Assembly: GCF_033568475.1 (NCBI RefSeq) | Contig: NW_027331831.1 | Coordinates: 1,674,001 to 1,738,000, forward strand | Length of the DNA: 64,000 nt | From: Henckelia pumila | Lineage: Eukaryota; Streptophyta; Magnoliopsida; Lamiales; Gesneriaceae | Direction: 5' to 3' | Part shown: positions 7,415 through 55,086 of the stretch, piece by piece | How positions within the stretch are numbered: the stretch's first letter is position 1 | Layout of the letters: each line of letters begins with the position of its first letter | The notes under the pieces: generated by a model | Told to the model about the DNA's origin: nothing | The model's input: only the letters and a program-made list of their open reading frames with translations | Databases searched by the model: none | Program-made: the position numbers and the translations under genes

Positions 7415-8440
7415 TATATGCTTTTTCATTCATGATATACAAAATTATGTTGTATATTTTTTTGAATGCATATATAATTTTTTTTTATTTATTATAGACT
7501 TATAGTATATATGAATTTATTTCTACAATTTTAATCGATAAAATAATTTAAAAAACAAAATATGTATCTAACTAAATTTAATGACAATATTGGACTTAAA
7601 CAATTTAAGCAAAGAGCAAAATTAACTTATTTATTTATTAATGTTTATTGAAGAGCTTATATGAAATGAGATTGTTAGAATATGATATGAATATAATATT
7701 TATTCGTATTTGTTTACAAATATATTGCATTCATTCAATACAATTTGGTTAAAAAAATAAAGATTTAATTAAAAATTATGAGAAACTTTTAGACGCTAAC
7801 TCTAATTATGTTAATCAATATATTAATTATTATCATTAATTTTTTTATTCTAATTGTTTTCATCTTTCATCAAAATACGACATATTGTATGTGAATGTTT
7901 TAAGTTATATAGAATACATAGTCTGTTAATAATTAATTTTGAGGTAATAAAGTATACATGTGTTTTGTGAAGCATGCCAGAGTTACATGTCTTCTGGAGA
8001 AGAAAACTTCCTGAGCATCAATACCTGCAGAGTAGTCAAGGTAAAACGTTAGATTAAAATGTATATTTTGTTCCAACTTCCAAGATTTTTCCACATGCAA
8101 GTTAGTAAAATGGTTCTCATAGTTAATGATACTTAGTAAATGAACTAACTTATATTATGCTTTTATGGAGATATAGAGTTCGATAAAAGGAAAAAAATGA
8201 AAAGACGTGAAAAGATTCATTACTCGAGTTGCTAGCTGTCAACATCAATGAACTCATTTGCATCAAGAAGACATCCATCTCAATCATTCAACTCCAACCA
8301 TGAACCATAATGGATCACATAGATACAGGATTTTTTAAGTGAAACTCCTAAAAATTGCAAAAAATGTTGGCAACAGAATAAGAATTCATCATATTTTATA
8401 AGCATATAATTGTATTGAAACCTTTGATATAACAGACCTT
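6650..8440. other. AT-rich convergent intergenic region with (TA)n microsatellite
   Basis: SYP81 (+) and NOL9 (-) converge here. From about 6780 to 7920 the sequence is extremely AT-rich. A perfect (TA)n tract covers about 7364-7407. Open frames across it are low-complexity (runs of I, Y, K) and were not called. The last few hundred bases before 8441 are probably the NOL9 3' UTR and flank. Confidence 0.6.
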
Positions 8441-11400
8441 CTAGCTGATAACATCGGGAGACATGTATGGAGAAACATGGCCAGAAGCCTGAGAAAAGAA
8501 ACAACTCGATTACTCCAATATAAAAGTAGCTAGGAAAACAAATCAACTTGAGAACAAATTTTCAAGCAATGTCAAACACCTGTGATCTCATATTTTCTAG
8601 TGCAATGTCTTCCAAATTTATATTAGGACAGTAAAAAAAGGAGAAATTGAGTAAACAATCACCTCTAATAAACACTGCGGAATCTGGATTAACCCCTGAA
8701 GTAAGAGATCGACATCCACCAGATACCGTTGTGGAACAGGGGTGACAATATACAGCATTCCTTTCTCAGGGTCAACAGATCTAACAAGTCCAAGTCCAAC
8801 ACAGCGAGATAAACGAAAAGAAACCTTGGAGCTAATTGCCAGGCCAACAATAGTAGCATTCAAGCTGCGGTAAATTTCAGTGGCGGCAACCTGGCATGAA
8901 GACAAATATACTCCTTGGTAAGCATGTAAACAATACACAATCATACATAGATATAAACAAAAGCAAAACATTCAAATATATTTCATCGCTGAACAATAAA
9001 TAAACTTTCTCGTATAATTCATTTTTAGGTGCCGTTCTAAAAGGAACCATCTATATTACTGCCACACACAGAGTCATACCTCACAATAAAGATGTTTGAC
9101 TTCAAAAATTGAAATGGGCACTTCATAAGGAGGGTGAGCAATTATTGCACGACAAAGTTCCGTTCTCGAGAGATTCTTATCACTAAGAAAACATTGCCTA
9201 AAATATTCCATAAGCCGTGAAACTCGATGGTCTTTTTGTACATGTACCCTGGAGAGACATTGTTAGATACAAAAGGGAGAACCAACAACTTTTGAAGATA
9301 CGAAGATTCACTGATTAAATTAACGTTGACAGTCATATTGAATGGTGTACATGGTAATGTTTAAGGGAGGAATACAGGTAGTCCACAGATTTTTTAAAAA
9401 AAACTCCAAGAGACAGATCCAGAATATTGACATGGGGAAAGGTCAAATAAAATGGCAAATAGTTATGGTAGAATTAGGAGTCACTCCAACTCCTTTCTCG
9501 AATTGTCTCTTAATATGGTATGCCCCAAAGGTTTTTTTTTTTTTATAGGAAACTAAATTATATTACTAGTAAAAATAAAGATAATTACAAAGGGCAGGTG
9601 GACCAGAGGTCAACTCGACAAGGAACTACCAAAAATCTAGAAACTCAAGCCAACTAACAAAAAATTGAAACTCCAATCCCTAGAAGGGATTTCTCATTCC
9701 TCACTCCTGATTAACACTCCTAAGCATGAAGAAATAGACCTAATGATTGTTGAGCCTTAAAGCAGAATAATTAAATTTATAATCCGTACTACCAAGTCCA
9801 GACCATACCAGAGGGAAATAAGGTTCAATGATTTCATTTTATTTATATATTGAGTTCATTTATAAGTTCGTTTTCACTACAAAGTAAAATAATTTATGTC
9901 AATCAATCATTGGTTAAGGACTTTCCAAATAGAATCGGATTGTCAGAATGCGACACAATTTAGATTCATAAACCAAGAGTTAACATAAAGATGAGAATAT
10001 TATTTCATACGATCTATAGAGAAGATCCTCCGCAACAGCTTTCATCTCAATGAGATGACTAGTATCCATTATCCCCTCACTCATCCAAAATGCACCAGCT
10101 GGTAAGTTCTTTGCTTTACTTGAAATCTGAATCTTAACAACATGTGTAGGAGACATATACTTTATCATGTCCTCTAGTACTTCATAACCAACACCTATAT
10201 TGTAGAACATTAAAGATACTTGAGATAGTCATACAGATATGAAAGAAAAAACGATAATGTACAAACCTTTGACCCAACCATGGGTATTTATCACAAGTGG
10301 CAAACCAGCATCACGACAGTTTGTGTCGTTTTTCATACGATGTTCTTTCAGGTAGTGATCAAACAGGTTGAATATACAAGACAAATACATTTCTGGGTCG
10401 TTTTTAGGAGATATGTCACCATAGAAAAAGCATCTGAAATCAGATATTCAAAAGTAAGAGTGGACCACAGTTTAATAACATAGATTTAACTGGAAAAACA
10501 TATATAAACAGCCAAAACTTTGCAACTCATAGAACTCAAGTCATAACCAATTAATTGTAGTATATAATTTTGGGAGAGAATTGAAAAAATGAATTTACAT
10601 ATGTAGGTAGGAACTTGGCAAATGAACTAATATGAGTAGAATAACATTATTGAGCCAATTTGAAATTAATAAATGTGCACAACAGAGCAAATACTGAGCA
10701 CAATTAATCGAGCTGTGTGGGTTGAAGACATGGAAACACAAACACAAAAACAAAAAAGTTGACTAGTAATATAGCTCTTTGGACTTTAGGTCATATTTGA
10801 ATGGGACTAAATAATAGCCTATATATCCAGCTTAACCAGTTTGTATTTGTAATATATGATATTCGCCTAAACTTAAAATGTGGAACATGCCACAAATAAC
10901 GGATTTCTATATCAACGACAATCAATAGTACATAAAAGGCAAAAAAACATAGTGTTTGAATATCTTGTACCTTTAACTTAAATAATAATTAATAATACTC
11001 TGCATATATGTGTGTGTGTGTACACAACTACACAGGAAGGACAGAAAAAGCAATGGTAAAAGTGTATAACATTGCATATTGAGAATTAATAATTGAAATA
11101 CGTGCTACAATACTTAATATACAATTTTGGCAAATGCTCCAAAACTTTCATAGTAAACAAGCCAGGAGCAAAGCTCAACATCGGCTCTTTATTTGAGCCT
11201 CAATACTTTCATACAAACAAATAAATACAATGGAGTGGAGATTTGGAGTTTGAAGCAACAAAATATATTGAGCAATGCAAGGGCTCCATCTTAATTTCGA
11301 GCCAAACAATCAATCAAAATAGATTCCAACAGAAACGTGTATATATGATGATACAATGAGTCCACCGGAAAAAAAAAAAAAAAAAAAAAAAGTCGGACAT

Positions 11401-11958
11401 TTCAACACCAACACAAAATAATCAAAGATCATTAGACAACTCATACCTTTCAGGAGTTTTCAATGATGGAGATTTCAGATCTAAATGACAAAAAAGAAGA
11501 GAATATTGAACCGATCATCATTCGGACCACACAACCACCAAATAAAAATAAACAATATAATTGCAGAAACCATAATGAGATTGTACCTGGAATACTTCTG
11601 TCTATCACAGTAAGCGATAGGAAACCGGGAGGAGTAAATACTGTCTGGCCAGCATCGGTATCAAGATAAGCCACTTTGTTGTGGCTGCAAAAGACAACAA
11701 AAAAAAATTCGATAAAGTCCTCGTATTCTATACCCAAAAAAAAAAAAAAAAAAAAAAAAACCAACTTCAGAACTCAAAATTTAACAAAAACCAGAAACAG
11801 TACCTTTGGAGTAAAAAATTAACGAGATGGAGCGAGAAAGTTGTTTTGCCGCAGCTATTAGGACCACAGATAAAGGCAATCGGAGGATCCGAGGAATCGG
11901 AATTGTTGGCTATACACTCGGTCGCCTCCGACCATTGCTGTGGTATATGAACCGACAT
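8441..11958 (-). CDS. NOL9: Polynucleotide 5'-hydroxyl-kinase NOL9/GRC3, intact
   Basis: RNA 5'-kinase of the Clp1/Grc3 family. In yeast and human, Grc3/NOL9 pairs with Las1 to phosphorylate cleaved ITS2 in the nucleolus. The exons, in gene order, are 11958-11804, 11684-11587, 11480-11447, 10433-10267, 10194-10011, 9248-9080, 8890-8663 and 8488-8441. All are GT-AG and phase-compatible, giving 360 residues, about the length of plant homologues. Exon 1 encodes the P-loop GPNSCGKTTF (residues about 32-41). Exon 2 has a Walker-B-like YLDTDAGQ and the family signature TPPGFLSLTVID. Exon 4 contains CFFYGDISPKNDPEMY and PLVINTHGWVKG. Exon 6 has EYFRQCF and HPPYEVPIS; exon 7 has RCVGLGLVRSVDPEKGMLYI. 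The protein ends ASGHVSPYMSPDVIS. The start gives the usual short lead to the P-loop. Decayed tandem copies lie upstream, and LAS1 lies beyond them on the same strand. Confidence 0.92.
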
Positions 11959-12117
11959 TGTTATACGATATTTTCAGGAAACAGGTTTAGGGGTTTAAGG
12001 TTTTCTACTTCACTTCATATACTGATATACACACACACAGCATAAAAGACAGAGAGAAGTAGCCGCCAATCTGAATGGGCTTCGAACACCGAACATAATA
12101 CTGTTTCTCAAAGTTAC

Positions 12118-12425
12118 TGTCAGGGTCTCCGTATAACTTGTTATTCAATCGTATGTTCAAACTTATCTTATTCAATGCGTTATTAATTATTAAAATTATT
12201 ATATTAATTTTTATAAATAATATTATTCATATTTTATTTATTATTAAAAAAACAAAATAATAATTTATCATTTTTATAAAAAATTTAATTAATCAAATCA
12301 AATAAACTATTATCTATCAATTAATCAAATATTAAATTAACTATCATTTTTATTTATTTTTATTTACATTACATTACTTATCTATATATTATCTATCATA
12401 TCACTCAAATCAAACTGAGAGTCTT
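12118..12425. repeat. AT-rich MITE, copy A of a three-copy family
   Basis: This stretch aligns by eye with 19867-20263 and, inverted, with 34104-34420. Shared landmarks are TTTATAAATAATATTATTCA, a run of AATCAAATCAAATAAACTA-type sequence, ACATTACATTACTTATC and a terminus CACTCAAATCAAAC. The left terminal repeat is degenerate here. It has no coding capacity. It lies about 160 bp upstream of the NOL9 start, so it could affect that promoter (inference). Confidence 0.65.
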
Positions 12426-13290
12426 ATTTCAATATTATATCCTAAATCAAATTTATCAATTTTTTGGGTCAAATCAGCGCAGATTTCAGAATATTTTGAA
12501 ACTTTCTTTTGGACCCCAATTAAACTTTAATTTTGTTTTTAATTATTGAAAATACTATTTGATAGCTCTACGTTCCCCTTTTTTCTTCTTGTTTTTTTTT
12601 TTTCTAAAAAACAATTTTATGTTCCTATATATTGAACAATATATGAATATTTACATATATTTTATTAATTAACGCATTATATTAAAGAATGAGTGATATA
12701 CGATTTTTTAAAATTTAAAATAATATTATTTTCAACTGTAAAATTATTTTTTTTTAAAATTTAAATGTTTAATTTATGTTTAGAACGAAAAGAAAAATGG
12801 GATTTGAAGTAATTTGGAATTAGAAATCGCGGACATTTTGAGCTCGTTTGCTTTCCACATTTTTTTTAAAAAAATAAGCACTTTTTTAAGCTCTAATTTT
12901 GGGTTTTTTAAAAAAAATTTTTAAGTTAAATAAGTGCTTTTTAAGCACTAAACAGCCAATCCAAACACATTACAAATTAAAAAAAAATAAAAAAATTTTA
13001 AAAAAGTAATTTTTTTATTTGACTTTTGATATTAAACGAGGCCTTTGTAACTGCAATCTATCCACGAAAAACTACTACATGTTATTTCAAGCTTGGAGTA
13101 AAAAAAAAAAAAAAAAAAGCAAAATGTCAAAAGTAGGAAATGTACAAAAATCGTTACTTTTGACCCCAAAAAACATCAATTATTCCATTAAATGGTCCAA
13201 AATTGGTTGGCCAAACCAAACACTAAATGGATCCATTATTATTACTAGCAACCGATGTACACGCTTTGCGTGTATGTAATTAATATCTAG
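12426..13290. other. AT-rich spacer with a MITE-like segment
   Basis: No gene was seen. About 12845-13030 has the look of a small hAT-type MITE: AAGCACTTTTTTAAGCTC and AAGTGCTTTTTAAGCACT blocks flanked by poly-A/T runs. Its ends were not resolved. A short segment near 13255-13275 (GTACACGCTTTGCGTGTA) is a near-palindrome immediately left of the NOL9-derived fold-back. Confidence 0.4.
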
Positions 13291-13292
13291 GA

Positions 13293-13754
13293 GATCAGTT
13301 CTGATGTTTCGAAACTACTGTCTCCATGTGTGGAACAAGGAGTTGTGAGCGACGATGAGATACGTTCTGGTGTTTCAGAACGATTATCTCGATGTATGGG
13401 ACTAGGACTTCTCCACGTGTGGAACAAGGAGTTGTGAGCGACGATGAGATACGTTCTGTTGTTTCAAAACGATTCTCTCGATGTGTGGGACTAGGACTTC
13501 TGAGAGGCGTCGACCCGCAAAATGGTATGTTATACATCATTACTCCAGTTCCACATGATACAAGTCACGGCCCAGTCTCCTGGGGAACTGGAGTAATGAT
13601 GTATAACATACCATTCTGTGGGTCGACGCCTCTCAGAAGTACTAGTCCCACACATCGAGATAATCATTCCGAAACACCAGAACGTATCTCATCGTCGCTC
13701 ACTGCTCCTTGTCCCACACATGGAGACAATAGTTCCGAAACATCAGAACTGATC
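13293..13754. repeat. Fold-back (inverted repeat) built from NOL9 exon 7
   Basis: The left arm is 13293-13552 and the right arm 13584-13754, with a 31-nt loop between. Once an internal 89-bp tandem duplication in the left arm (13322-13410 and 13411-13499) is discounted, both arms are 171 nt. They pair with about 11 mismatches and no other gaps, counted by eye. The arms carry NOL9 exon 7 sequence: the left arm, read on +, encodes SRCVGLGLLRGVDPQNGMLY, matching RCVGLGLVRSVDPEKGMLYI of the intact gene. The right arm sits in the exon-7 position and orientation of pseudogene copy 2, so the left arm is the inverted copy. A direct repeat (AAGTCACGGCCCAGTC at 13562, AAGTCACAGCCTAGTC at 13771) brackets the right arm. 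A transcript from either strand would form a long hairpin. Confidence 0.9.
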
Positions 13755-16700
13755 ACCAGACCAACGATTTAAGTCACAGCCTAGTCAATTTCAATAATGG
13801 GAATGGGAAGCTGGCAAGAAGACAAATATCCTCCTTGGTAAGCATGTTAGCGATCGTAAATAAGAAAGTCTAAAGGGAAGAAAAACATTCAAAATCGTTT
13901 TCTAACAGAAAAATAAATAAATCGTTTTGCATAATTCGGTTGACACACACAACCATACCTCCCAATAAAAAGGTCTGATCTTGCAACGAGAAGATAGAAG
14001 CTCATAAGGAGGGTGTCCAATGAGTTTTAGACCAAATTCTTTGTCAGTGAGTTTCCTATCGCACGGAAAGCATTGTTCAATGTATTCTTGTATGCGTGAA
14101 TTTTGGAGATGATAAGCATGTTGTGGCCTAGAAAGGCTGTTGTGGCTTGGAGAGGCAAGAGGTAACTAGAAACTTTTGGAGATATGGAGATTGATTGATT
14201 CAGTTCATGTTGGCAGTCATACTGAAAGGTGTACATAGTAATATTCAAGGGAGGGATACATGTTACCCATGGAAAAGACAAGCGAACATCAAGGCAATGA
14301 GACGAATCGGGTAAAATAACATATTATCAAACCTCTGGGTACAACCACACTCGCCTAGAACTCTCAACTATAACGGTACATCCGGTTCTAGAATATCTCC
14401 TAGAACCCCCCGCTATAACGGTACATCCGACTCTAGACTAAATATAGGTATATCAAAAGAATAGGCTCAACATGTATGCGCACATGACATATGAATATGG
14501 AAAGCAGTAAACCATACATCATGCCACATAATAATGTCATAGAAATGCAACATATAAACATGTACTCGCTGGCAATCTCATTCAATGTGTACGTACCTCT
14601 AAGCTAGTTCGAGTTTAGTAGGACCTAGGTTCCAAGCCTATAATCAAAAGTTCACCGTATCACTACACAAGTTCTATAAGCCTTAACTAAACTAATAGAT
14701 ACTCCTAAAACTTAATAAGATTCCCGGACCATACTTTCGTCTGTAGTAAGCCCTTTCGATTCGCTCGTTCTGGAGGACTATAACAACACATTTGTTATTC
14801 CAGAACATATCTATTAACGGATAAGGCCCTCAAGTGTATAACTCACACTATATATAACTGAAGAAGGAAACTCGAAATTCGATGGTCAAGGTTCGGCCAT
14901 GTTCGGAGCCTCCGTTTCGGGATCAGAGCGTTCGAACTCTGAATGCATGACACGTGAAGATCGGAGCATCCGAACTCGAGATCGGACCATCCGATCTGCT
15001 GACTCTTGGACACATGTCAAAACTCGTGGCTTAGTCATCGTGCATTGTTGGCTGAGGGAGTTCGATCGGACCGTCTGATGATCAGGGTTCGAAGCCTCCG
15101 ATCCTGCCTTCCTTACGAAGTAAAATACTATACTTTGTTGCCTCCGAAGTGATGGGTTCGGAGCCTTCGAGCTGGCCCATGCACAAAAGTCCAACTTTTG
15201 CTTCTGAAGTCCAGTGAAGCCCTCGAGTTGGTTAAATACTCACCGTTAATCATGTTTATCATATTATTATCTTAAAATGGGTTCTGGGTTACTACAGATA
15301 TATTGTATCATGCGCATCAGCAATTCAATATGACGATCTGCACATAAAACAAAACAGATATCATGTCTTGAACCCTCGGCACAAAGCACCACAAGACATT
15401 GAATTTACCCAAAGTATAGCAATAACAAAAAATACAATGATTGGTTATGAACCCTAGTCGCAGGATACTGTATTTATCACGAGCAAGAAACGAGCGTCCT
15501 TCATATAGTGCTCAAACATGCAAAACACTTGTTTTTCGAAACACTTGTTACGAACATAAATATTATTATGGATTTTACTATAGCGGGCCTAGAGCCCTAG
15601 ACCAATGCAATTTATGTGATGTAAGCCCACAATCCCTTGGAAGGATCTAGATATGGGAAAGGGTATAAAACGTGGGTAATTAAGAATCATTCGGTTATTT
15701 TGTTGTGAAGGAAAATACTAGCTTAGTCTAGCTAGGGGAGAGGAGTAAATGTAACAATTTGACTGGGAGAACATAAGTAAACAACTAAGAAGATTTTCTA
15801 TACTTGTAGAATCCAATCCCCAGCCAGAGATAACATTTGAAACCTCTGTCGAGTTACACACAAACATACAAAATTGACGAGACAGTGAATTATACGAACT
15901 CGGGGACAAATTTGAATAGGACCAAATAAGACTCTAATGCACGTAGCTAGGTTCGCAGTTTTTAAGGCTACTTCCGAGCTTCATGGTAAGAGCAGTGGGG
16001 TATTGAGAGTAAAAAATTGAAATACTCACTCTAACACTTGATATACTTTGTTTGGACTCCTAAATTTAATTGCATAAGAAAGAAGGCAGGAACAACCAGA
16101 GGATTTTTTCTCAAGACTTCTATAGAACCAAAGGAAAATCAAATGAAAGAAACGTTCCAACAGAAACATGTACCATATTTGTTCACTAAACAACACCAAC
16201 AAAAAATAATCAAAGTGAATCAGAGAAATCATACCATTCAGGAGTTTTAAAGGATTGAGATGTCAGATCTAAATGACAAAAAGAAGAGAATATATAACCG
16301 ATCAGCATACTAACCACACAACGAACAAAACAAAAAATAACACACATCCAGATATTGTACCTTGAATAATTCCGTCAATCACAATAGGCAATGAGAGATA
16401 AGGAGGCGTAAATACTGCCCGATCAACATCAGTATCAAGATAACACACTTTGATATCAAAGTATTGTTTTGGGAGAGATTATAAGAAGCATTTGTGACTG
16501 CAAACAAGAGAGCATCCACATTTTTTAGAAAATTTTAAAAATAAAAAAATAGCATTCTACTGTGTTGTTTATGCACGGTTTAAAGCCATTCTACTATGCT
16601 TTACACATGAAATTGGGAGACGTAAAAAAAAATAGCAACAATAAACAAGTGAAAAACGTACCTCCGGAGTAAAGCATTGATAAGATGGAGCGAGAAAACG

Positions 16701-16804
16701 GTTTTGCCGTAATTTTGAGGACCCAAAACCAAGATAATCGGAGCGGTGGAAGAAACGATGGACTCAGTCGCATCGGACCAATCTCGCGTTACAAAAACCT
16801 CCAT
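13584..16804 (-). pseudogene. NOL9 tandem copy 2, degenerate and interrupted
   Basis: Collinear with intact NOL9. Exon 1 is 16804-16662 and reads MEVFVTRDWSDATESIVSST, then a P-loop GPQNYGKTVF. Exon 2 is about 16497-16361 and contains an in-frame stop soon after its expected acceptor, though YLDTDVDRAVFTPP is still readable. Exon 3 lies near 16269-16237. Exon 4 is cut short (about 15560-15450), because roughly 100 bp present in copy 3 are absent. Exon 5 survives only as a stub (about 15345-15297), ending where an LTR element begins. An exon 6 relic (about 14110-13958) still reads EYIEQCFPCDRKLTDKEFG and HPPYELLSS. Exon 7 is the right arm of the fold-back. No full frame remains, so it cannot make an NOL9 protein. 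Confidence 0.85.
14295..15296 (-). mobile_element. LTR-retrotransposon remnant, probably a Ty3/Gypsy (Tekay-like) LTR
   Basis: On the minus strand the segment begins TGTAGTAACCCAGAACCC at 15296, a typical start for plant Ty3/Gypsy LTRs. It is rich in short GTTCGGAGC/TCCGA-type repeats, as in the LTRs of that group. It abuts the exon 5 stub of NOL9 copy 2. The left limit is approximate and no matching target duplication was found, so the copy looks incomplete and old. The family assignment rests on terminal sequence only. Confidence 0.5.
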
Positions 16805-17209
16805 TGTTCTGCAGCGGTTTCTTATTTGGCGTCTCTACTTTCTTTGGAATCTTGTTTTTTTTGGAGGGTGAGAAAATTAATTTAGTAGTGAAATGGGTTT
16901 TGCTTGGGTGGAATGAAAGCCCAGATTCCATTTACAACAATTTCTCCGCATCTTTGTTTTTCCAGAGTTTTTTATTTTTATTTTTGTAAAAATCATAATT
17001 AGATCACACTGGATGAATTTCGGGTAAATTGTGATAAAATGCCCAAACTCAAGTTTGGGGACAATCCCCCGTGTCAGGGGAAATGAGTTTGCACTACCTT
17101 ACTCATTAGTTTGTTATTTTAAACTCCCTAAATACATTACACACTTAAATTATACTTTTAAAATATATTTTGACATTTAATACCAAACATAAAGAAATTG
17201 ACCTTTAGA
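16805..17209. other. 5' flank of NOL9 copy 2 and spacer to copy 3
   Basis: About 16805-16990 is homologous to 19250-19440 upstream of copy 3 (shared CTGCAGCGGTTTCTT and TTTGGCGTCTCTACT). This shows that the tandem unit included the 5' flank and probably the promoter. The remainder to 17209 holds no recognisable gene. Confidence 0.6.
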
Positions 17210-19249
17210 ATTTATATCTATAAGCAATAAAGCAGAATAATTGAATTTACAATCCCGAGACATTCCTCAATCCTGACCATACCAATAGGGGAATAAGGGA
17301 CCAAATATTTCATTTTAATTATATATATTGAATCCATTACAAATTCATCTCTCCCATATAAAAATAAAATCAATCATCGACTATGGCCTTTTCAAATAGA
17401 ATTGTATTATCAAAATGTAACACTGTTCTGATTCACAAATCAAGTGCTTAACATAAAGATCGGAAATATTAGTTCTTACGATATGTCCCAAAGATCATGC
17501 GTAGGAGCCTTTAACTCTATGAGACAAGCAGTATTACTATTATCCTCAGTCTCCTCATCACCTATCCAAAATATGCCTTCAGGTAAGTTCTTTCTCTCGA
17601 GTGAAACCCGGATATTCACAACATGGGTTGGAACCGTTGGGTAGATATATTGTATCATGCGCATCAGCAATTCAAGACGACGATCTGCACATAAAACAAA
17701 ACAGATAGCATGTCTTGAACCCTCGGCACAAAACACCATAAGACATTGAATTTACCCAAAGTATACCCGATAACAAAGAAAACAACAACGATTGGGTACA
17801 AACCATAGTCGCGGGATACTGTATTTATCACGAGCGGGAAACGAGCGTCCTTCATATAGTGCTCAAACAGGCAAAACACTTGTTTTCGAAACGTTGTTTC
17901 ATCCCCATCAGAGGTTTCGGTAGTATAGAAAAAGTACCTGAAACTGACATATTAAAAAAATACCATAGATTTGTGTTACGAACATAAACATTATTATGGA
18001 TTTTACTATAGCGGGCCTAGAGCCCTAGACCAATGCAGTTTATGTGATGCAAGCCCAATCCCTTGGAAGGATCTAGATATGGGAAATGGTATAAAACGTG
18101 GGTAATTAGGAATCATTTGGTTATTTTGTTGTGAAAGAAAATACTAGCTTAGGCTAGCTAGGGGATAAGAGTAAATGTTACAATTTGACTCGGAGAACAT
18201 TTATGTAAACAACTAAGAAGATTTGCTATACTTGTAGAATCCAATCCATAGTCAGAGATAACATTTGAAACCACTGTTGAGTTGGACACACAAACATACA
18301 AAATTGACGAGACAGTGAATTATACGAACTCGGGGACAAATTTGAATAGGACCAAATAAGACTTTAATGCACATAGCTAGGGTCGCAGTTTTTAAGGCTA
18401 CTTCCAAGCTTCATGGTAAGATCAGTGGGGTATTGAGATTTGAGAGTGAAAAATTGAAATACTCACTATAACACTTGATATACTTTGTTTGGACTCCTAA
18501 ATTTAATTGCATAAGAAAGAAGACAGGAACAACCAAAGGATTTTTTCCACAAGACTTCTATAGAACCAAAGGAAAATCAATTGAAAGAAACATTCCAACA
18601 AAAACGTGTACCATATTTGTTCACTAAACAACACCAACACAAAATAATCAAAGTGAATCAGAGAAATCATACCGTTTAGGAGTTTTAAAGGATTGAGATG
18701 TCAGATCTAAATGACAAAAAAGAAGAGAATATATAACCGACCAGCATACTAACCACACAACGAACAAAACGAAAAATAAACACCCATCAAGATATTGTAC
18801 CTGGAATAATTCCGTCAATCACAATAGGCGATGGGAGATAGGAAGGTGTAACTACTGCCTGATCAACATCAGTATCAAGATAACACACTTTGATATCAAA
18901 ATGTTGTTTTGAGAGATCTTCTAGGAAGCATTTGTGACTACAAACAAGAGAGCATCCACATCTTTTAGAAAATTTTAAAAATGAAAAATAGCATTCTACA
19001 TTTCTACTGTGTTGTTTATGCACGGTTTAAATCCATTCTACTGTGCTTTACACATGAAATTGGGAGACGTAAAAAAAATAGCAACAATAAATAGGTGTAA
19101 AACGTATCTCTGGAGTAAAGCATTGACGAGATGGAGCGAGAAAATGGTTTTGCCGTAGTTTTCAGGACCCAAACCAAGACAATCGGAGCGGTGGAAGAAA
19201 CGATGGAATCAGTTGCATCGGACCAATCTCGCGGTACAAGAACCTCCAT
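17210..19249 (-). pseudogene. NOL9 tandem copy 3, 3'-truncated
   Basis: Exons correspond to 19249-about 19107, 18937-18801, 18706-18673, 17937-17804 and 17684-17480; part of intron 5 follows, to about 17210. Exons 6-8 are missing, because the 5' flank of copy 2 starts there. Exon 1 has lost one T relative to copy 2 just before the P-loop and so shifts frame (VLVWVLKTTAKPFS instead of a GPxNYGKT loop). Its donor reads AT instead of GT. Exons 2-5 are still open and similar to NOL9: SHKCFLEDLSKQHFDIKVCY, LFEHYMKDARFPLVINTVSR and THVVNIRVSLERKNLPEG. Exon 2 carries about 15 extra residues relative to intact NOL9. Copies 2 and 3 are far closer to each other than to the intact gene. With no usable P-loop or C-terminus, it is not a working kinase. 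Confidence 0.85.
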
Positions 19250-19747
19250 TGTTCTGCAGCGGTTTCTTCTTTGGCGTCTCTACTCTCTTAGCTGAGAAAT
19301 GGAATCTTGTTTTTTCGGAGGGTGAGAATTGTAATTTAGGTGAAATGGGTTTTGCTTTGGCGGAAAGAAAGCTCGGATTCCATTTACAACAATTTCTCCA
19401 CATCTTTGTTTTTCCAGAGTTTTTTATTTTTCTTTTTGTAAAAATCACAATTTCTCCGCATCTTGGGTTTTGGATATTTTATCACAATTTACCGACGAAT
19501 TTCAGAGGTTTTTTTTTTCGTTTTGTGTTTGGACTTTCCATATTTGTATATAGCCATAGGTATTTAAGAAAAATTGTGAAGAAAATTACAACACGGTGCA
19601 TACTAACTCCACCGTAGGATTTGGAACATTAAAATTTGACGCATCAGATATTATTGAGTCTTGTGCTAATGGTTGAATTTCGAATAACTGAATCACGGAC
19701 CGTGTGAAATTATTATTATTATTGAACTAGACGAACCGTGAGCGCGC

Positions 19748-21121
19748 GCTATGTTTGGTACAGGGGATAATAATGTGATAAGATAATAATCCCATAATTA
19801 TCCAATGTTTGTCTCGTTTTTCGTTTTATTTGTTGGCACGTGATAATAGAAAAAAGCTCACAATGTTCGGCTCTGTTTGATTGAGTTATTATTAATCTAT
19901 GTATAACTTATCTTATTTAATCACATATTTTTCTCGGCATATTACTTATCCATCTATTAATTATTTATTTTACATCAATCAAATCATTAATTATTTATTT
20001 TATATCAATCAAATCATTGAAATTAAATTACTATCTTACCCCTTATAAATAATATTATTCATATTTTATTTATTGTTAAAACGAAAAAATGAGTCTGACA
20101 ATTTATCATTTTCTTATAAAATTCAATCAATCAAATCAAATAAACTATAATTTATCAATTAAATTAAATATTATATTAACTATCATTTTTTATTTATGTT
20201 TTATTACATTACATTACTTATCCATATACTATTTATCATATCACTCAAATCAAACGGAGCCGAATTCTATAATATAATTTACATGACAAATTAACCTCAA
20301 AACAGGTGTGATAAATTGTCTTAACTTTTGATTACAATATATATTTACTAGAATATCCCTGGGAAAAACTAAAGAGAAGAACTAATCATCTCTAACGTCG
20401 AAAGCAGGAAACCACTCTCATCGTTTTTGTTGCAGTAGTAAGTTCAAGAAAATAGATCTAAAAAAGAAATAGCAGAAGTGAAAGAAGATTGTGGTCAGAA
20501 GGAATATGCGTTTATGGTGCAACGTACTGAAGGTAAAAATATTGTAGACCAAAATTTTTTAAATTTTATTTGACGGATAGTATTCTAAAATTGAGAGATA
20601 AAAACCTTAGAAATCAAAAGGGGATGCTTGGTCGGTGGATGAATATATGGTGGGGGTTGCGAGAATGATGGAATGACATAATTGGAAATCTAAAGATGTA
20701 GTTCTGTGTATGGTTTCGGAAAGAAAGAGTGCAGGAGATGAAAGTTTTGCAGCAAATTTTTTAAAAAAATTAATAATGTATTTTGTAAACAACATTTAAT
20801 ATGTATTTTAAATAATTTGATTCGTTTTTAGAAGAAAATTGTTGGTATTTCGAATTTTTTTTAACAAAATATCGTCGGTACGTATATTAGATTTGAAGAA
20901 GTTTTTAAAAATATTATTATATTATTTAAGAATAAGAAATAGGAAAGAAAATTGGTAGAGAGGGTACTTTGGTCATTCCAAGAAAATATATAAAATTAAT
21001 CCATCATTTTAAAAACACACCAAACATTATATAATATATCACATTATATTATTTATCACCATCTTTCGATTTCTTATCAATCTTATTATTTATTTTATCA
21101 CATCCCACGAACCAAACGGTG
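19748..21121. mobile_element. Putative non-autonomous TIR transposon, about 1.4 kb
   Basis: The left end reads GTTTGGTACAGGGGATAATA. The right end, reverse-complemented, reads GTTTGGTTCGTGGGATGTGA, followed on both sides by GATAA/AATAATAAG-type blocks. No transposase frame was seen, and a second MITE (19867-20263) is inserted inside. No clear target duplication was found, so the superfamily is unassigned and the ends are provisional. Confidence 0.4.
19867..20263. repeat. MITE, copy B of the three-copy family, with clear TIRs
   Basis: The termini are inverted repeats: TTCGGCTCTGTTTGATTGAG at the left, and TTCGGCTCCGTTTGATTTGA as the reverse complement of the right. The interior is very AT-rich and aligns with copies A (12118-12425) and C (34104-34420). 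It has no coding capacity. Target duplications were not resolved. It sits inside a larger TIR element. Confidence 0.7.
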
Positions 21122-34103: not shown

Positions 34104-34420
34104 ATGGTACCAAACAGATGATAAATAATACATGGATAAGTAATATAAAATAAATAAAAAATTATAGTTTATATAATATTTGATTTGATTGATAGATTAT
34201 TATTTATTTGATTTGACTGATTAAATTTTATATAAAAATGATAAATTATTATTTTGTTTTTTTAAAAATAAATAAAATATGAATAATATTATTTATAAGG
34301 GTAATATAGTAATTTAAATTCAATGATTTGATTGATGTAAGATAAATTATTAATTATTTGATTGATATAAAATAAATAATAAATAATTAATAGATGTATA
34401 AATAGTATGACGAGAAGAAC
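34104..34420. repeat. MITE, copy C of the three-copy family (inverted)
   Basis: Reverse complement of the 12118-12425 and 19867-20263 elements. The shared words here are GATAAGTAATATAAAATAAA-like and TTTGATTTGATTGATAG sequence, and ATATGAATAATATTATTTAT. It has no coding capacity. It lies about 360 bp upstream of the LAS1 start codon. Confidence 0.6.
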
Positions 34421-35584
34421 GCGATTGGATAGGATAATATATGAGTTCGATGATATCTTAAAAAGTTAGGATGAAATTTTTTGGAGCAATATATTAGAGG
34501 AAAATTAAATTTGAAAATTGAAAATTGAAAATCAATATCATAGAGAAAGTTTCATACACTGAAATTACATGTAATTTAAAATTTATTGATGATTATCTTT
34601 GTAACACCCAAAAAATTTCGAGTTGTTCATTTAAAATTTAATTAATGGAATATAATATAATAATATTGATGATGATAAACTACTACGATAAATAAATAAA
34701 ATAAGGCCAAATTAATGGATTGTAACATAAAAATAGAGTAAAGGGGTGGTTAATCAACAGAAACTCGACTAAAAAACTGCATAGTATACAAAATACATCA
34801 ATATACATGCTCATATAAGATATTAAGATCACATAAATAAAAATCGTATATATAAAAATAAGATATTAACCAAACTAGACACCGGGCCATAAATATTGAT
34901 GTATTTTGTATACTATGCAGTTTTTTAGATGTAGGGAAAGGTGTATCAAAATCATTGAACAAATTATCGGAAACGAAGTTGTGAAGAAAATCTGGAAACT
35001 TTACACAAAACTCCATTCTGGGTAGTAGCTATAGCCTATATTTCACTTCTAATTTTTCATTTTTCGTGAACGAATTTCACTTGGGTCATACTATAAAATT
35101 GGTTCAAAACGTCTTTTTGTGAACATAAATTCCGGCCGTTTGTCCTCACAATATCCAGAATTAATGTTTTCAGACGATCAGAGTAAGCTTGAACATCATA
35201 TTAGCATTGCAAAATTTGGTATTTATACATAAAAAATCTCGAAAAATGTTAAACATATATAAAACATATATATCATCGCACGCAGATACATGCATCATCC
35301 CAGAAAAAATACAGTCACAGTCACGCGTGTCTCCATGCACACGCTTTGGCTAGATGCCAGTTTTCGTGATATTCGATCACTTCTAGTCTTTACATTATTT
35401 TCAAGCATTCTTAGAAAGATTGGTAACTTTTTGACTTAAGTGTGATGGTTAAAATTTTAACAAAAAATACCTAGTACAAGTTTTTTAAATGAATTTCAAA
35501 AAGTTCAAACAACTTTGTATTGCCCACCAACATAAAACGCCTGAAATTATATTTATAGAAAATTATCTTACTTGACTCATCAAC

Positions 35585-43919: not shown

Positions 43920-45447
<1,528 letters not shown>

Positions 45448-50370: not shown

Positions 50371-53300
50371 CTAACTAGCATTCGGACGCAAAGGCGCAAC
50401 CGAATCCGGAAAATCCGTTCTTTGCCCAGCAAGAGAATAGTAAGCCAGGATATGAGCAGGATGCTCCACGAGTACTTGTTCCCCATTCGGGTCCGCGACG
50501 TAGTCATATTTCGCAGGTATCAACTCAATATTCCAATACGGCCTAACCATAGTTAACAAATCTCGACCATGCCCAGATGTCCGAAAACCTTGGACCCATA
50601 AGTACCTCAGAGATCGCAGTCGCAGGGCAGTCATAGCCAGCGCTCGTTCGCTGAAACAACAGCCTCTCATTTCCAACTTTTGAAGGCTAGGACACCCATT
50701 GGAAAACTCCAAAAGACCGTCATCCGACTCCCCAACATAGCCAAGAAGCATCCATCGAACATTTGGGCTGTGCTGTCCAATGTAACGCAGGCCTACGTCA
50801 GTTAATCCTCCGGGACGGAGATATAGAGCAAATCTTCTGAGTTTATGGCAACCTATCAGTAGAGATCGAACGCCACTGTCCAGAGGCAAATCGGTAATAA
50901 CTTCCTCTCTATCAAGTAAGACTAGTCGAAAGTCACACAGGTTTTTCGAGTGTCTACCGAGACATTCAAGAGCTGAATTCGTAATATCAGACACATAAAC
51001 GGCTAAATACTCTAGCTCAAGGCATCCTCGAGCTAGAGCTATCAATCCTCTCTGCGTCACCATGCCTTCAACATCTTCCATATCTTGTTCATCGGCTCCC
51101 CGCTCTATTCTAAGCCTTTTCAATCTTTTACAAAAATTGGAGAGAATTTCCAATCCTCTATCTCCAAGCACGTTTCTAGTCTGTTGTAAAGAGATCGATA
51201 AATTAATATAGATAAGTCTATGATTAAAATTTACTGAATCCGTTACATATTGAGAATAATAAAATCATACAATGACAACGATATGCAACATTTTTTATAT
51301 TGTTCACTCAAAAGTCATACCTGGTACCAAACATGTCCCTTGAAAAACACATGGAACGAGAACGTCCGAACAAAGTTCATACGATTCCATTATTCAATAC
51401 AACGGAACTTTTGTTCACATCAAAACAAACTGCAATAATTGCCAAACCCTACAACGGAACTTTTGTTCACATCAAAACAAACTGCAATAATTGCCAAACC
51501 CTACTCCCCAAGTTTGGAATGAAAAGAATAAGACACGAGTAAAGAGGAGCCAACATCATGGACCGAGAACACACACCGTTCCTTCTCCTTTCGAATTATG
51601 CCCCATAAAATTGAGTAGAAGGGGCATCCCGTGAAAAAAAAAAGAAGAAGAAAATGAAGCAGCCACATAGTTTCTTGATCCTTGGTTTATGAATCTAAGA
51701 CTAGATAGTTTGTAGCCTTCGCTTCAAAAGAACTAGTCATGTTTGGAGTATTTTTATATAAGCTTCACAAATAATGTGACTCATGTTGTGCCATCCTAAC
51801 ATCATGGGATTCATGAGTCATTCATCCAATATGCATATTCCATTGTAAATATTATTAGGAAAAGAAGGTACCAGTTTATTTAAATGGTAGCTCATGAGCT
51901 CAATGTGAGGTCCATCTTCATTCATAAACAAAAAACAGTATACGTTGTTTGACATGAAGTCACTTATCCCACAGAGAAAAAATGGGCTGATTTCTACCGA
52001 AAAGTGTCATAAAAAAAGACTCTTAACCGACAGAGCAATAGCATATTAACCAAACCATTGTTCTTTATATTCCAGTTAACCAAAAAAATGCCAAAAGTCA
52101 TTTGTTTCCAAACAAAAAAACTAATTATGGATATTAAAACAAAAAAGAAAAAAAGGACCAAATGCCAGTCACAAGGGAACAGGCATGCATGTGCTTAAAG
52201 GGTTGAGCAATGATTTTGAAGTTTTACCTCAAGAAATTCCAAGTTTGGACATCTTTGCAGTAAGATACAATGGCCTTCAGTGTCGAGCAGTGCATACAAA
52301 AGATCCAATTTTTTCAACCTAGAAGCAACCGGATAGATGATGGGCATTTCTTTATTACCCAAGTAAGTAAGACCAAGGCGGCACAGATTTGGTGGGAATG
52401 CAACAGCAGCATATCTTTCAAATTGCTCGTTAAGGCCTTCATCAACCTGCTCAGGAGGCTCACTAAACGAGCCCCCAGCAAACTCTTCCAGAGAAGTAGC
52501 AGCTTGGAAAAAACCAATGAGCTCCAAAAGATCGCATTCACAAATTTTCACTGAGGACAAAGATTTGCAATTTCTCGCTATCAGTTCAAGGTCTACGATC
52601 CTTATATTTAGGAGATCAGCCATGTAAAAATTCAAGTTCTCAAGAACTGTGTTGTTCATAGCAAGCTCATGCAGCCATTCCCCGTCATTCTCACTCATGG
52701 AGCTTTCTTCCAGAACAAAAGTTTTCAAATTCCTGAAAAGGGTTAAAGATTACGAAACAGAGAGACTTCTTGCATCCTTAGTTGCAGGTTTAAAAAATCA
52801 AATGGTGACTGGAAAGGATGAGAATTCCATGTAAGAAAGAGGGAGAACCAATTGGACCAAGCAATGGAAGGGATGATTTTTAAGTGAAAAAGATGGAAAT
52901 GTTACCATATCGATTGGGCATCTCTTTCTCCAGGGTAGAATAGAATTATTGGTTCATCGTTCATATTCAGTAGAAACTCATGAAGAAACTTCACACGAAA
53001 GTGCAGTGCAGCGTGCCAATCCAACGTGTAACAAAATTATATAGAAAATCTGGAAACAAAAGGGTTCAAATGCGGAAAAACTTTTGACAAGTTCTGAACT
53101 TAAATTAAACAAGTGCCCTTAAAAATCCAGAAGCCACAATCCAATCTTAAAATGCTAGACAATGTTCTCTCATTTACATTTTTTGTTAACCAACAGTACA
53201 CAATTTAAACAAAATAAAGACCGCATATGGGGACTACAAATAAATCATTTCATAGGATCAGCTGATACAAATTTCACATTCAGATATGCTGAGCATTCTT

Positions 53301-54094
53301 AATGTTTTAATTGGTCAATACTGGTCAACACATAATCCCAATTGTACATGACCATCGCAAAGCTCAACCCACACCAACATAATATAGAAAAACTCATACA
53401 AAACATGCCTATCTTCCCATTTAAAATCTTCAGATCTTCTAAGCAATTATTCTTAAATACAAATAGCATCCATTACACTCAGTGCCCTTGTCGAAGAATA
53501 GTAAATTTCCACAACAGTTACAGAAGAGCACAACACCTAAAACAGAGACAATAAATTTATGAACTAAATTAAACTCCCAAACAGTAAAAGATGGATCGCA
53601 TTGCAGTACCTGCACAATCGTCCCACAATCCGAAGCCCATGGGTGGAAAACCCACAACACTTATCCAATTTCAAGACTTCCAGAACCTTCCCCGCGTCGG
53701 AAGTGGCGAGCAGCTCGAGATCCGAATCCTTCACAATCATCCTCCTGAAATGCAGCGCTTTCATTCTCCCAAAAGACCTCACGATTTCCTCCGCCCACGA
53801 GGTGACATAGCCACCCCAATCCTCCGGAATCAAATTAAACATGGCCGCGCGCGGCTTTCCCTTGAGCTTGAGCGACTCGAGGTGGGGGAACCGCCGCGAG
53901 AGCCGCTGCGGCGTGGTGGTGTAACAAAGCGCGATTGTCACGTGCTTGCGCGTGATGGCGTCAATCTCGTACCAGCGCTTGCACACAAGTGATAGCGCGT
54001 CGCGGTCACGCGGGTCCTGCACGAACGGGATCGCGCACTCCCATACAGTGTCATAGTCCCCACTACTTGCCTTGATCGATTTATTCTCCTCCAT
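50371..54094 (-). CDS. COI1: COI1, jasmonate receptor F-box/LRR protein
   Basis: F-box subunit of SCF-COI1; it binds JA-Ile with JAZ repressors and sends them for degradation. The three exons are 54094-53610, 52732-52228 and 51180-50371, GT-AG and in phase, the usual COI1 gene plan, giving 599 residues (Arabidopsis about 592). The F-box region is near residues 12-60 (VWECAIPFVQDPRDRDALSL, VCKRWYEID). LRRs follow: HLESLKLKGKPRAAMFNLIP, LELLATSDAGKVLEVLKLDK, KKLDLLYALLDTEGHC, RIERGADEQDMED, DFRLVLLDREE, PNVRWMLLGYVGESDDGLLE and KLEMRGCCFSERAL. The C-terminal capping motif EHPAHILAYYSLAGQRTDFP is conserved. The start was chosen as the first in-frame ATG before the F-box. No break is visible. Intron 2 contains a 52-bp tandem duplication. 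Confidence 0.96.
51398..51501. repeat. 52-bp tandem duplication in COI1 intron 2
   Basis: The unit beginning ACAACGGAACTTTTGTTCAC and including AACTGCAATAATTGCCAAAC occurs twice head to tail, identical by eye, with period 52. Confidence 0.85.
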
Positions 54095-54124
54095 TCTCCA
54101 CCAATTCCAAGGGTTTCCACAGCT

Positions 54125-55086
54125 ACTATGGAGTTGGGTGGGCGGCGAAGGAGCCGGAGGAGCTTAATCGGACGGCAATGGATGGGAATCCATGGCTACT
54201 GTGTGTCGCTGTGGCCTGTGAGTCGGTTCAGTCTCAGATTGAGGGCAAAAGGACAAATGTGGCATTTGACAGTAGATAACGAAGGTTACTAACTTTAATT
54301 CCCTACCACTATTTACACATTATTACATTCTTTATTTTTAATTTTTAATTTATCAGCAACCGTCCCATTTGATTTTCAAACAATTTAAAAATATCGAGAA
54401 GATGTAAGTTTTGAGATAAAGTAAAGAGAAATTGAACATACAATGTAATAAGAATTGATAAATGATGATATTTGAAAAAAAAAAAATGATAGAGTGAAAA
54501 TGATAGATATGTTATAGAAAAATTAAGATACATTTAAAATTTAATTTAAAGAGAGTGTGAGTTTAATTTAGAAATAAAAAATAAATATATTTTGATATGA
54601 TTTTGCACGCCAAAACAGTTGGTTTAAAGGGTGTCATTATTATATATTTGACATTTGTATTTTTACTATTTTAATGACATTATTAATTTTATTCCTGCTA
54701 AATTTGTGTTACCTTATTCGAGCATGGATAAATGTCTGTCAAGTATACCGTTGCCTCTGGATTATTATATGTTAAATTTGAAGTATTTTTCTTTCTATGA
54801 CGTGGTCAAATGTCAATCATTGAATAATCAACATATGTATTAATTTCATAAAAATATAAAAATTTCACGTTATCTAATGATATTGAAATAGGAGAAAAAA
54901 TACGTTCAATGTAACATATTATGATAATGGTATTGAAATAGGAGGAAAAATACGCTCAATGTAACATAGCATAATATGTTGCATCCACATTGAGGTAAAT
55001 TTTGAAATCATTGTTCAACGCTTTAAGCACATGCATTTGATTCCACTGTTAATTTAATTGTTGGTATTGGAAGCAGCTGATGACTT
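54125..55086. other. COI1 5' flank and AT-rich spacer
   Basis: About 54125-54300 is the COI1 upstream region. A GAAATAGGAGRAAAAATACG-type sequence near 54888 and 54935 is a diverged short direct repeat with CTCAATGTAACATA/TTCAATGTAACATA. No gene was seen. Confidence 0.5.

What the first reader, a model, noticed from the sequence alone, without database searches (positions are those of the whole stretch)
13293..13754. Long hairpin made from an inverted duplicate of NOL9 exon 7
Two 171-nt arms (left arm expanded by an 89-bp duplication) pair at about 94% identity around a 31-nt loop. The arms encode a recognisable NOL9 exon 7 segment. This is the structure expected of a young hairpin-RNA or proto-MIRNA locus born by inverted gene duplication. 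Identity of the arms to the intact NOL9 exon 7 is only about 70% by eye, so any small RNAs may act on another paralogue or on nothing at all.
Basis: partly seen in the sequence, partly recalled or inferred. Interest (0 to 1): 0.78.

Follow-up and report, generated by a model that had tools for sequence, protein, structure and literature searches.

The report
Inverted scrap of a broken NOL9
A plant's broken spare copy of the RNA-processing gene NOL9 ends in a piece of itself copied backwards, which could fold into a long RNA hairpin but looks like a decaying rearrangement scar rather than a working gene regulator.

Summary
13293-13754 is an inverted duplication: two 180-nt arms, 92% alike once the left arm's extra 89-bp unit is set aside, around a 13-nt spacer. 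It folds 33-38 standard deviations below shuffles.

The arms do not come from the intact-looking NOL9 at 8.4-12.0 kb. The right arm is the native exon 7 of a second, broken NOL9 copy ("P", minus strand, 13.6-19.2 kb), in place behind its own intron 6 and exon 6. The left arm is the inverted copy. It joins a 46-bp Helitron-like 3' end, truncated at the junction. The rest of P's exon 7 was not found.

The arms differ (K 0.083) about as much as an unrelated duplication inside P (0.064-0.077), so nothing shows that pairing is maintained. Two arm segments searched genome-wide with up to 3 mismatches hit only the hairpin. Arm 21-mers score no better on whole NOL9 genes, introns included, than random stretches do; on exon 7 alone they score slightly better, as homology predicts.

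Best reading: a foldback-type rearrangement scar at the 3' end of a tandem pseudogene. It may yield hairpin siRNAs if transcribed, with no trans target shown. Expression was not testable.

The parts
13293..13561 (+). left arm: inverted copy of P exon 7 (NOL9 sense on + strand), enlarged by an 89-bp tandem duplication
   Evidence: NOL9_C match of a peptide from it
13321..13409 (+). 89-bp unit 1 of the left arm
   Evidence: 94.4% to unit 2
13410..13498 (+). 89-bp unit 2 of the left arm
13562..13574 (.). 13-nt spacer (loop)
13575..13754 (-). right arm: native exon 7 of the broken NOL9 copy P, with an in-frame TGA
13755..13810 (-). start of P exon 7, outside the hairpin, behind an intron acceptor aligned with that of copy A (read by eye)
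   Evidence: aligned with copy A and C4 copy
13811..14263 (-). P intron 6 and exon 6 (exon 6 peptide about 13956-14108, 49% to C4 copy)
15296..19201 (-). upstream part of P with an internal tandem duplication (15296-17000 and 17643-19452)
13245..13290 (-). 3'-terminal 46 bp of a non-autonomous Helitron-like element (ends CTAG|T), truncated where it meets the left arm
8423..11973 (-). intact-looking NOL9 copy A (matched exons open; no full gene model built); exon 7 at 8660-8890

Best explanation
P is a tandem NOL9 paralogue that was probably protein-coding for most of its history. Its exon 7, already carrying an in-frame 66-nt tandem duplication, broke about two thirds of the way through. The broken end was copied back on itself (foldback or template-switch repair), giving a 180-nt inverted copy 13 nt away. 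That new end was joined to a truncated Helitron-like 3' end lying upstream of copy A, and the rest of P's 3' end was lost. A later 89-bp tandem duplication enlarged the left arm. Since then both arms have drifted as a pseudogene does. Shown: native right arm, inverted left arm, junctions, relative order of duplications, lack of excess arm conservation. Inferred: the repair mechanism and the loss in the same event. If P is still transcribed from its own strand, its 3' end would be a near-perfect hairpin open to Dicer-like enzymes; the siRNAs would match only the hairpin itself closely and act in cis or not at all. This last step is untested.
For: Right arm collinear with P intron 6 and exon 6 and with the two other NOL9 genes. 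Inverted left arm abuts a repeat of which the 7 fetched copies (of 39 other hits) all continue past the junction point while the window copy does not. Hairpin found at one place in 884.7 Mb. NOL9 exon 7 found only in copy A, C4 and the two arms. No trace of the missing part of exon 7 or of the last exon between copy A and the hairpin. Arm K 0.083 +/- 0.023 (0.102 with unit 2) against P's internal duplication 0.064 +/- 0.007 and 0.077 +/- 0.019; ts/tv 9/5 against 55/34 and 10/8. Earlier coding constraint: dN/dS 0.04-0.23 for the arms against copy A and C4, over 28 codons only.
Against: No expression, small-RNA or methylation data are held, so an active hairpin locus is not excluded. 7 of 9 arm transitions keep a G-U pair in the P-sense transcript (2 of 9 in the other), and that strand folds better (-349 against -327); by hand P is about 0.18 two-sided, and P's internal duplication leans the same way (A/G 37, C/T 28). 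Between the arms 3 of 5 coding differences are synonymous (dN/dS 0.22-0.23), more than the roughly 1.3 expected by hand from site numbers under neutrality, though 5 changes prove nothing. The 3 mismatches next to the loop fit a simple foldback less well. No related species could be compared.
Confidence: 0.8

Rival explanations
1. Active hairpin-RNA locus: P-sense transcripts fold and are diced into 21-24-nt siRNAs that silence the P locus in cis, possibly spreading to the upstream region of copy A (first recognised exon about 1.3 kb away).
For: Near-perfect stem in the P-sense strand; hairpin lies between the broken P and the 5' side of copy A; precedent of inverted rice pseudogenes giving hairpin small RNAs (PMC2708354, passages).
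Against: Arms drift like the neighbouring duplication; no expression data; no clear excess of transitions over the rest of P, as heavy cytosine methylation might leave.
Confidence: 0.15
2. Proto-MIRNA acting in trans on NOL9 (copy A or the C4 copy).
For: Arms are homologous to NOL9 exon 7; best target scores 5.0 (copy A) and 4.0 (C4). Taken on the two exon 7s alone, the hairpin's better score, 4.0, lies below all 40 random stretches (lowest 4.5, median 7.0).
Against: Over whole genes, introns included, random stretches do as well: 31 of 40 reach 5 or less on copy A and 14 of 40 reach 4 or less on C4. No site other than the hairpin within 3 mismatches for two arm segments. No Rfam match at gathering scores.
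Confidence: 0.04
3. Helitron gene capture: the inverted NOL9 piece is cargo of a Helitron whose 3' end is at 13245.
For: Left arm joins 46 bp of a family 3' end ending CTAG|T; an A|TC occurs next to the spacer on the minus strand (seen by eye).
Against: No family 5' end in the window above shuffle level (best score 29; five shuffles reach 26-29); hairpin found at one place only; 7 of 7 fetched copies carry an ordinary body of about 300 bp instead; sequence to the left of 13245 showed no match to the missing part of exon 7.
Confidence: 0.07
4. Assembly or fold-back read artefact.
For: Adjacent inverted arms are a common artefact class (recalled).
Against: Arms differ at 14-17 of 180 positions and the left arm has its own 89-bp duplication; an artefact would be near identical.
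Confidence: 0.01

Closest known systems
Inverted duplicate pseudogene pairs able to form RNA hairpins (rice; PMC2708354, passages read)
   Same: adjacent inverted fragments of one parent gene; stem over 100 bp, loop under 2 kb
   Different: the rice pairs were chosen for small-RNA density; none is measurable here. Here one arm is the native exon of the pseudogene
Inverted-duplication origin of plant MIRNA genes (Allen 2004, seen only as cited in PMC3237417; PMC3237417 passages read)
   Same: gene-derived inverted duplication giving a long foldback; pseudogene-derived cases are reported
   Different: donor is a broken paralogue; arms only 72-77% like the other NOL9 genes; no target shown
Foldback inversions / inverted duplications by DNA repair (PMC7467729 and PMC3907307, search listing only)
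   Same: inverted copy of a broken end with unrelated sequence beyond (the anatomy I take from recall and from the start of the abstracts)
   Different: a 180-bp case inside one plant exon; mechanism inferred from anatomy only

Membership tests
Plant MIRNA gene (inverted duplication type) | foldback arms with extended similarity to a gene | tested here: met
Plant MIRNA gene (inverted duplication type) | near-complementary target in another transcript, better than chance | tested here: inconclusive
   best scores 5.0 and 4.0, within the random range over whole genes with introns, but 4.0 below all 40 random stretches on the two exon 7s alone; two arm segments, no other site within 3 mismatches
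Plant MIRNA gene (inverted duplication type) | precise miRNA/miRNA* processing | not testable with these tools
   no small-RNA data
Hairpin-forming inverted pseudogene pair (criteria of PMC2708354) | stem over 100 bp and loop under 2 kb | tested here: met
   criteria seen
Hairpin-forming inverted pseudogene pair (criteria of PMC2708354) | small-RNA density on the hairpin | not testable with these tools
   no small-RNA data
Foldback inverted duplication | native arm in place, inverted copy next to it, short spacer, unrelated sequence beyond | tested here: met
   the list of features is recalled
Helitron cargo | family 3' end CTAG|T with a hairpin | tested here: met
   7 of 7 fetched copies and the window, read by eye; features of Helitrons recalled
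Helitron cargo | family 5' end on the far side of the cargo | tested here: not met
   none in the window above shuffle level

The most novel reading that the evidence does not exclude
The broken tandem NOL9 copy is still transcribed, and its self-made hairpin yields siRNAs that direct DNA methylation over the P locus and the upstream region of the intact-looking NOL9 copy A about 1.3 kb away: a pseudogene that sets its live neighbour's expression in cis.
Probability: 0.04. Interest if true: 0.45.

Novelty: new member of a known kind. Interest (0 to 1): 0.18.

Why it matters
It shows the raw material of hairpin-RNA evolution caught with its donor still in place: native arm, inverted copy, junctions and a datable neighbouring duplication are all legible, so drift can be told from maintained pairing. 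Here the answer looks like drift, a caution against calling every gene-derived hairpin a proto-miRNA.

Tried and rejected
Rfam at gathering scores, whole window: 0 matches. tRNA scan: 0. Helitron cargo: not the leading reading, because no 5' end and a single place. The flanking repeat was first taken as ending at 13290; the fetched copies showed that the element ends at 13245 and runs into the hairpin side. An open frame of 137 aa across the hairpin (13359-13772) spans both arms and is not taken as a gene. Literature: Helitron, inverted duplication and gene capture together gave 0 papers; inverted repeat, hairpin RNA, pseudogene, siRNA, plant and tandem duplication gave 1, on a fruit fly genome; NOL9 and plant gave 27 papers, 15 listed, and no plant NOL9 hairpin appears in the titles or abstract starts shown. 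Searches (38 papers, 15 listed; 12; 4; 23, 8 listed) were used for background.

Not done: genome-wide target search for every arm 21-mer (two segments answered; a third did not complete); target control on spliced transcripts only; search with the repeat-containing P peptide (not answered, not repeated); species identity; relatives, since the collections I know of here hold no plants. L010 was fetched and not examined, and the upstream copies L019-L024 were not read.

Full report
What is there. The inverted repeat is real and at the stated place. Arms 13410-13561 / 13575-13726 and 13290-13412 / 13635-13757 were found mechanically. The left arm carries an 89-bp tandem duplication. With one unit set aside, each arm is 180 nt with 14 (unit 1 kept) or 17 (unit 2 kept) differences. 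Both strands fold far below shuffles: + strand -327 kcal/mol, z -32.8; - strand -349.4, z -37.5; 0 of 100 shuffles as low in each. A search of the 64-kb window for inverted repeats of at least 60 nt with arms within 2 kb (exact 12-nt seeds, no gaps) returned only these two pairs.

Where it lies. The window is part of an 884.7-Mb genome in 133 contigs, on contig C77; by its gene content it is a plant (inference). A search with the copy A exon 7 peptide found four places in that genome: copy A in the window, a copy on contig C4 with 72% protein identity, and the two hairpin arms. Pfam NOL9_C matches the copy A exon (E 2.9e-22) and a peptide from each arm (1.5e-8 and 6.2e-8).

The donor. Blast of the window against itself and against the C4 locus shows a second, degenerate NOL9 copy, P, on the minus strand. 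It runs from the right arm through intron 6 and exon 6 (13805-14322) to about 19.2 kb, with an internal tandem duplication (15296-17000 and 17643-19452). The right arm is P's own exon 7: a splice acceptor and about 55 nt of exon precede it in line with copy A and C4. So the right arm is native and the left arm is the inverted copy. This is why the arms match the other NOL9 genes by only 72-77%. In one well-conserved exon piece P is about as far from copy A and C4 (74-78%) as these are from each other (78%).

Order of events. An in-frame 66-nt tandem duplication lies inside both arms (76% between its units; absent from copy A and C4), so it predates the inversion. The arms differ by K 0.083 +/- 0.023 (unit 1) or 0.102 +/- 0.025 (unit 2). 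The 89-bp units differ by 0.059 +/- 0.027. P's internal duplication differs by 0.064 +/- 0.007 and 0.077 +/- 0.019. The errors overlap, so the order of the last three is the likeliest, not proven. With a recalled rate of about 7e-9 per site per generation the inversion would be some 6 million generations old; this is rough. Over 28 codons the arms against C4 show dN/dS 0.16-0.23 and against copy A 0.04-0.05, where dS is near saturation; copy A against C4 gives 0.18. P was therefore probably coding for most of its life. The right arm now has an in-frame TGA.

The outer junction. The left arm abuts a 46-bp stretch, 13245-13290, with 39 other scored matches in the genome, a lower bound. The seven fetched copies are about 340-bp elements that end, in minus orientation, with a small hairpin and CTAG followed by T (7 of 7, and the window), and begin clearly with A|TC in 4 of 7 by eye. 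These are recalled features of Helitrons. All seven continue where the window changes to the hairpin arm, so the element is truncated at the junction. No 5' end of the family was found in the window above shuffle level.

How it works, if at all. The best reading is a scar: break in P exon 7, foldback or template-switch copying, joining to the truncated element, loss of P's 3' end. The repair path is inferred. Foldback inversions through single-stranded hairpins are described in yeast (PMC7467729, search listing only). Nothing shows that the pairing is kept. The arms have diverged about as much as the neighbouring duplication, with a similar ts/tv. By eye against the C4 and A sequences, changes have hit both arms. 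Two results lean the other way without being significant. Seven of nine transitions leave a G-U pair in the P-sense strand (P about 0.18 two-sided, by hand), though P's internal duplication leans the same way (A/G 37, C/T 28). Three of five coding differences between the arms are synonymous.

Targets. The best 21-mer scores (mismatch 1, G-U 0.5, doubled at positions 2-13) are 5.0 on copy A and 4.0 on C4. Of 40 random 462-bp stretches of the window, 31 reach 5 or less on copy A and 14 reach 4 or less on C4, so such scores mean little over a whole gene; these genes were taken with introns, which probably makes chance hits easier. Restricted to the two exon 7s, the hairpin's better score (4.0) is below all 40 random stretches (lowest 4.5, median 7.0), as homology predicts. 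The target test is therefore inconclusive, with four mismatches at best on the C4 gene. Two arm segments searched through the whole genome with up to 3 mismatches hit only the hairpin (2 and 3 sites; the second pattern read backwards gave 1 chance match).

Comparison. Inverted pseudogene fragments that form hairpins with small RNAs are reported in rice, in the example given without small RNAs from the parent (PMC2708354, passages). TE- and pseudogene-derived MIRNA births by inverted duplication are reported in rice and Arabidopsis (PMC3237417, passages). This locus meets the structural criteria of the former. For a MIRNA gene, the target test is inconclusive and processing cannot be tested. 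It is a clear but ordinary member of a known kind.

Noticed in passing
15296-17000 and 17643-19452: The broken NOL9 copy P carries an internal tandem duplication of about 1.7 kb, 92.7-93.8% identical outside gaps, including a second Walker-A-like exon.
   Followed up: partly
12193-12419, 20025-20259, 34118-34437: A repeat occurs three times in the window at 82-85% identity; two of them lie on the 5' side of NOL9 copies A and P.
   Followed up: no
12835-13051: A roughly 200-bp repeat with at least 39 other copies at 71-84% identity lies between copy A and the hairpin.
   Followed up: no
13245-13290: Truncated 3' end of a roughly 340-bp non-autonomous Helitron-like family.
   Followed up: yes
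13627-13688 and 13693-13754 (right arm), with counterparts in the left arm: An in-frame tandem duplication of period 66 nt inside the exon of P, older than the inversion and absent from the two other NOL9 genes.
   Followed up: partly
53567-54163 (-), probably with 50374-52749 (-): F-box and TIR1-like domains (Pfam F-box_5, Transp_inhibit); resembles the jasmonate receptor COI1 by recall.
   Followed up: no
43923-44555 (-): A PCNA C-terminal domain (Pfam PCNA_C) followed in the same frame by a long charged, repetitive tail, unusual for PCNA as I recall it.
   Followed up: no
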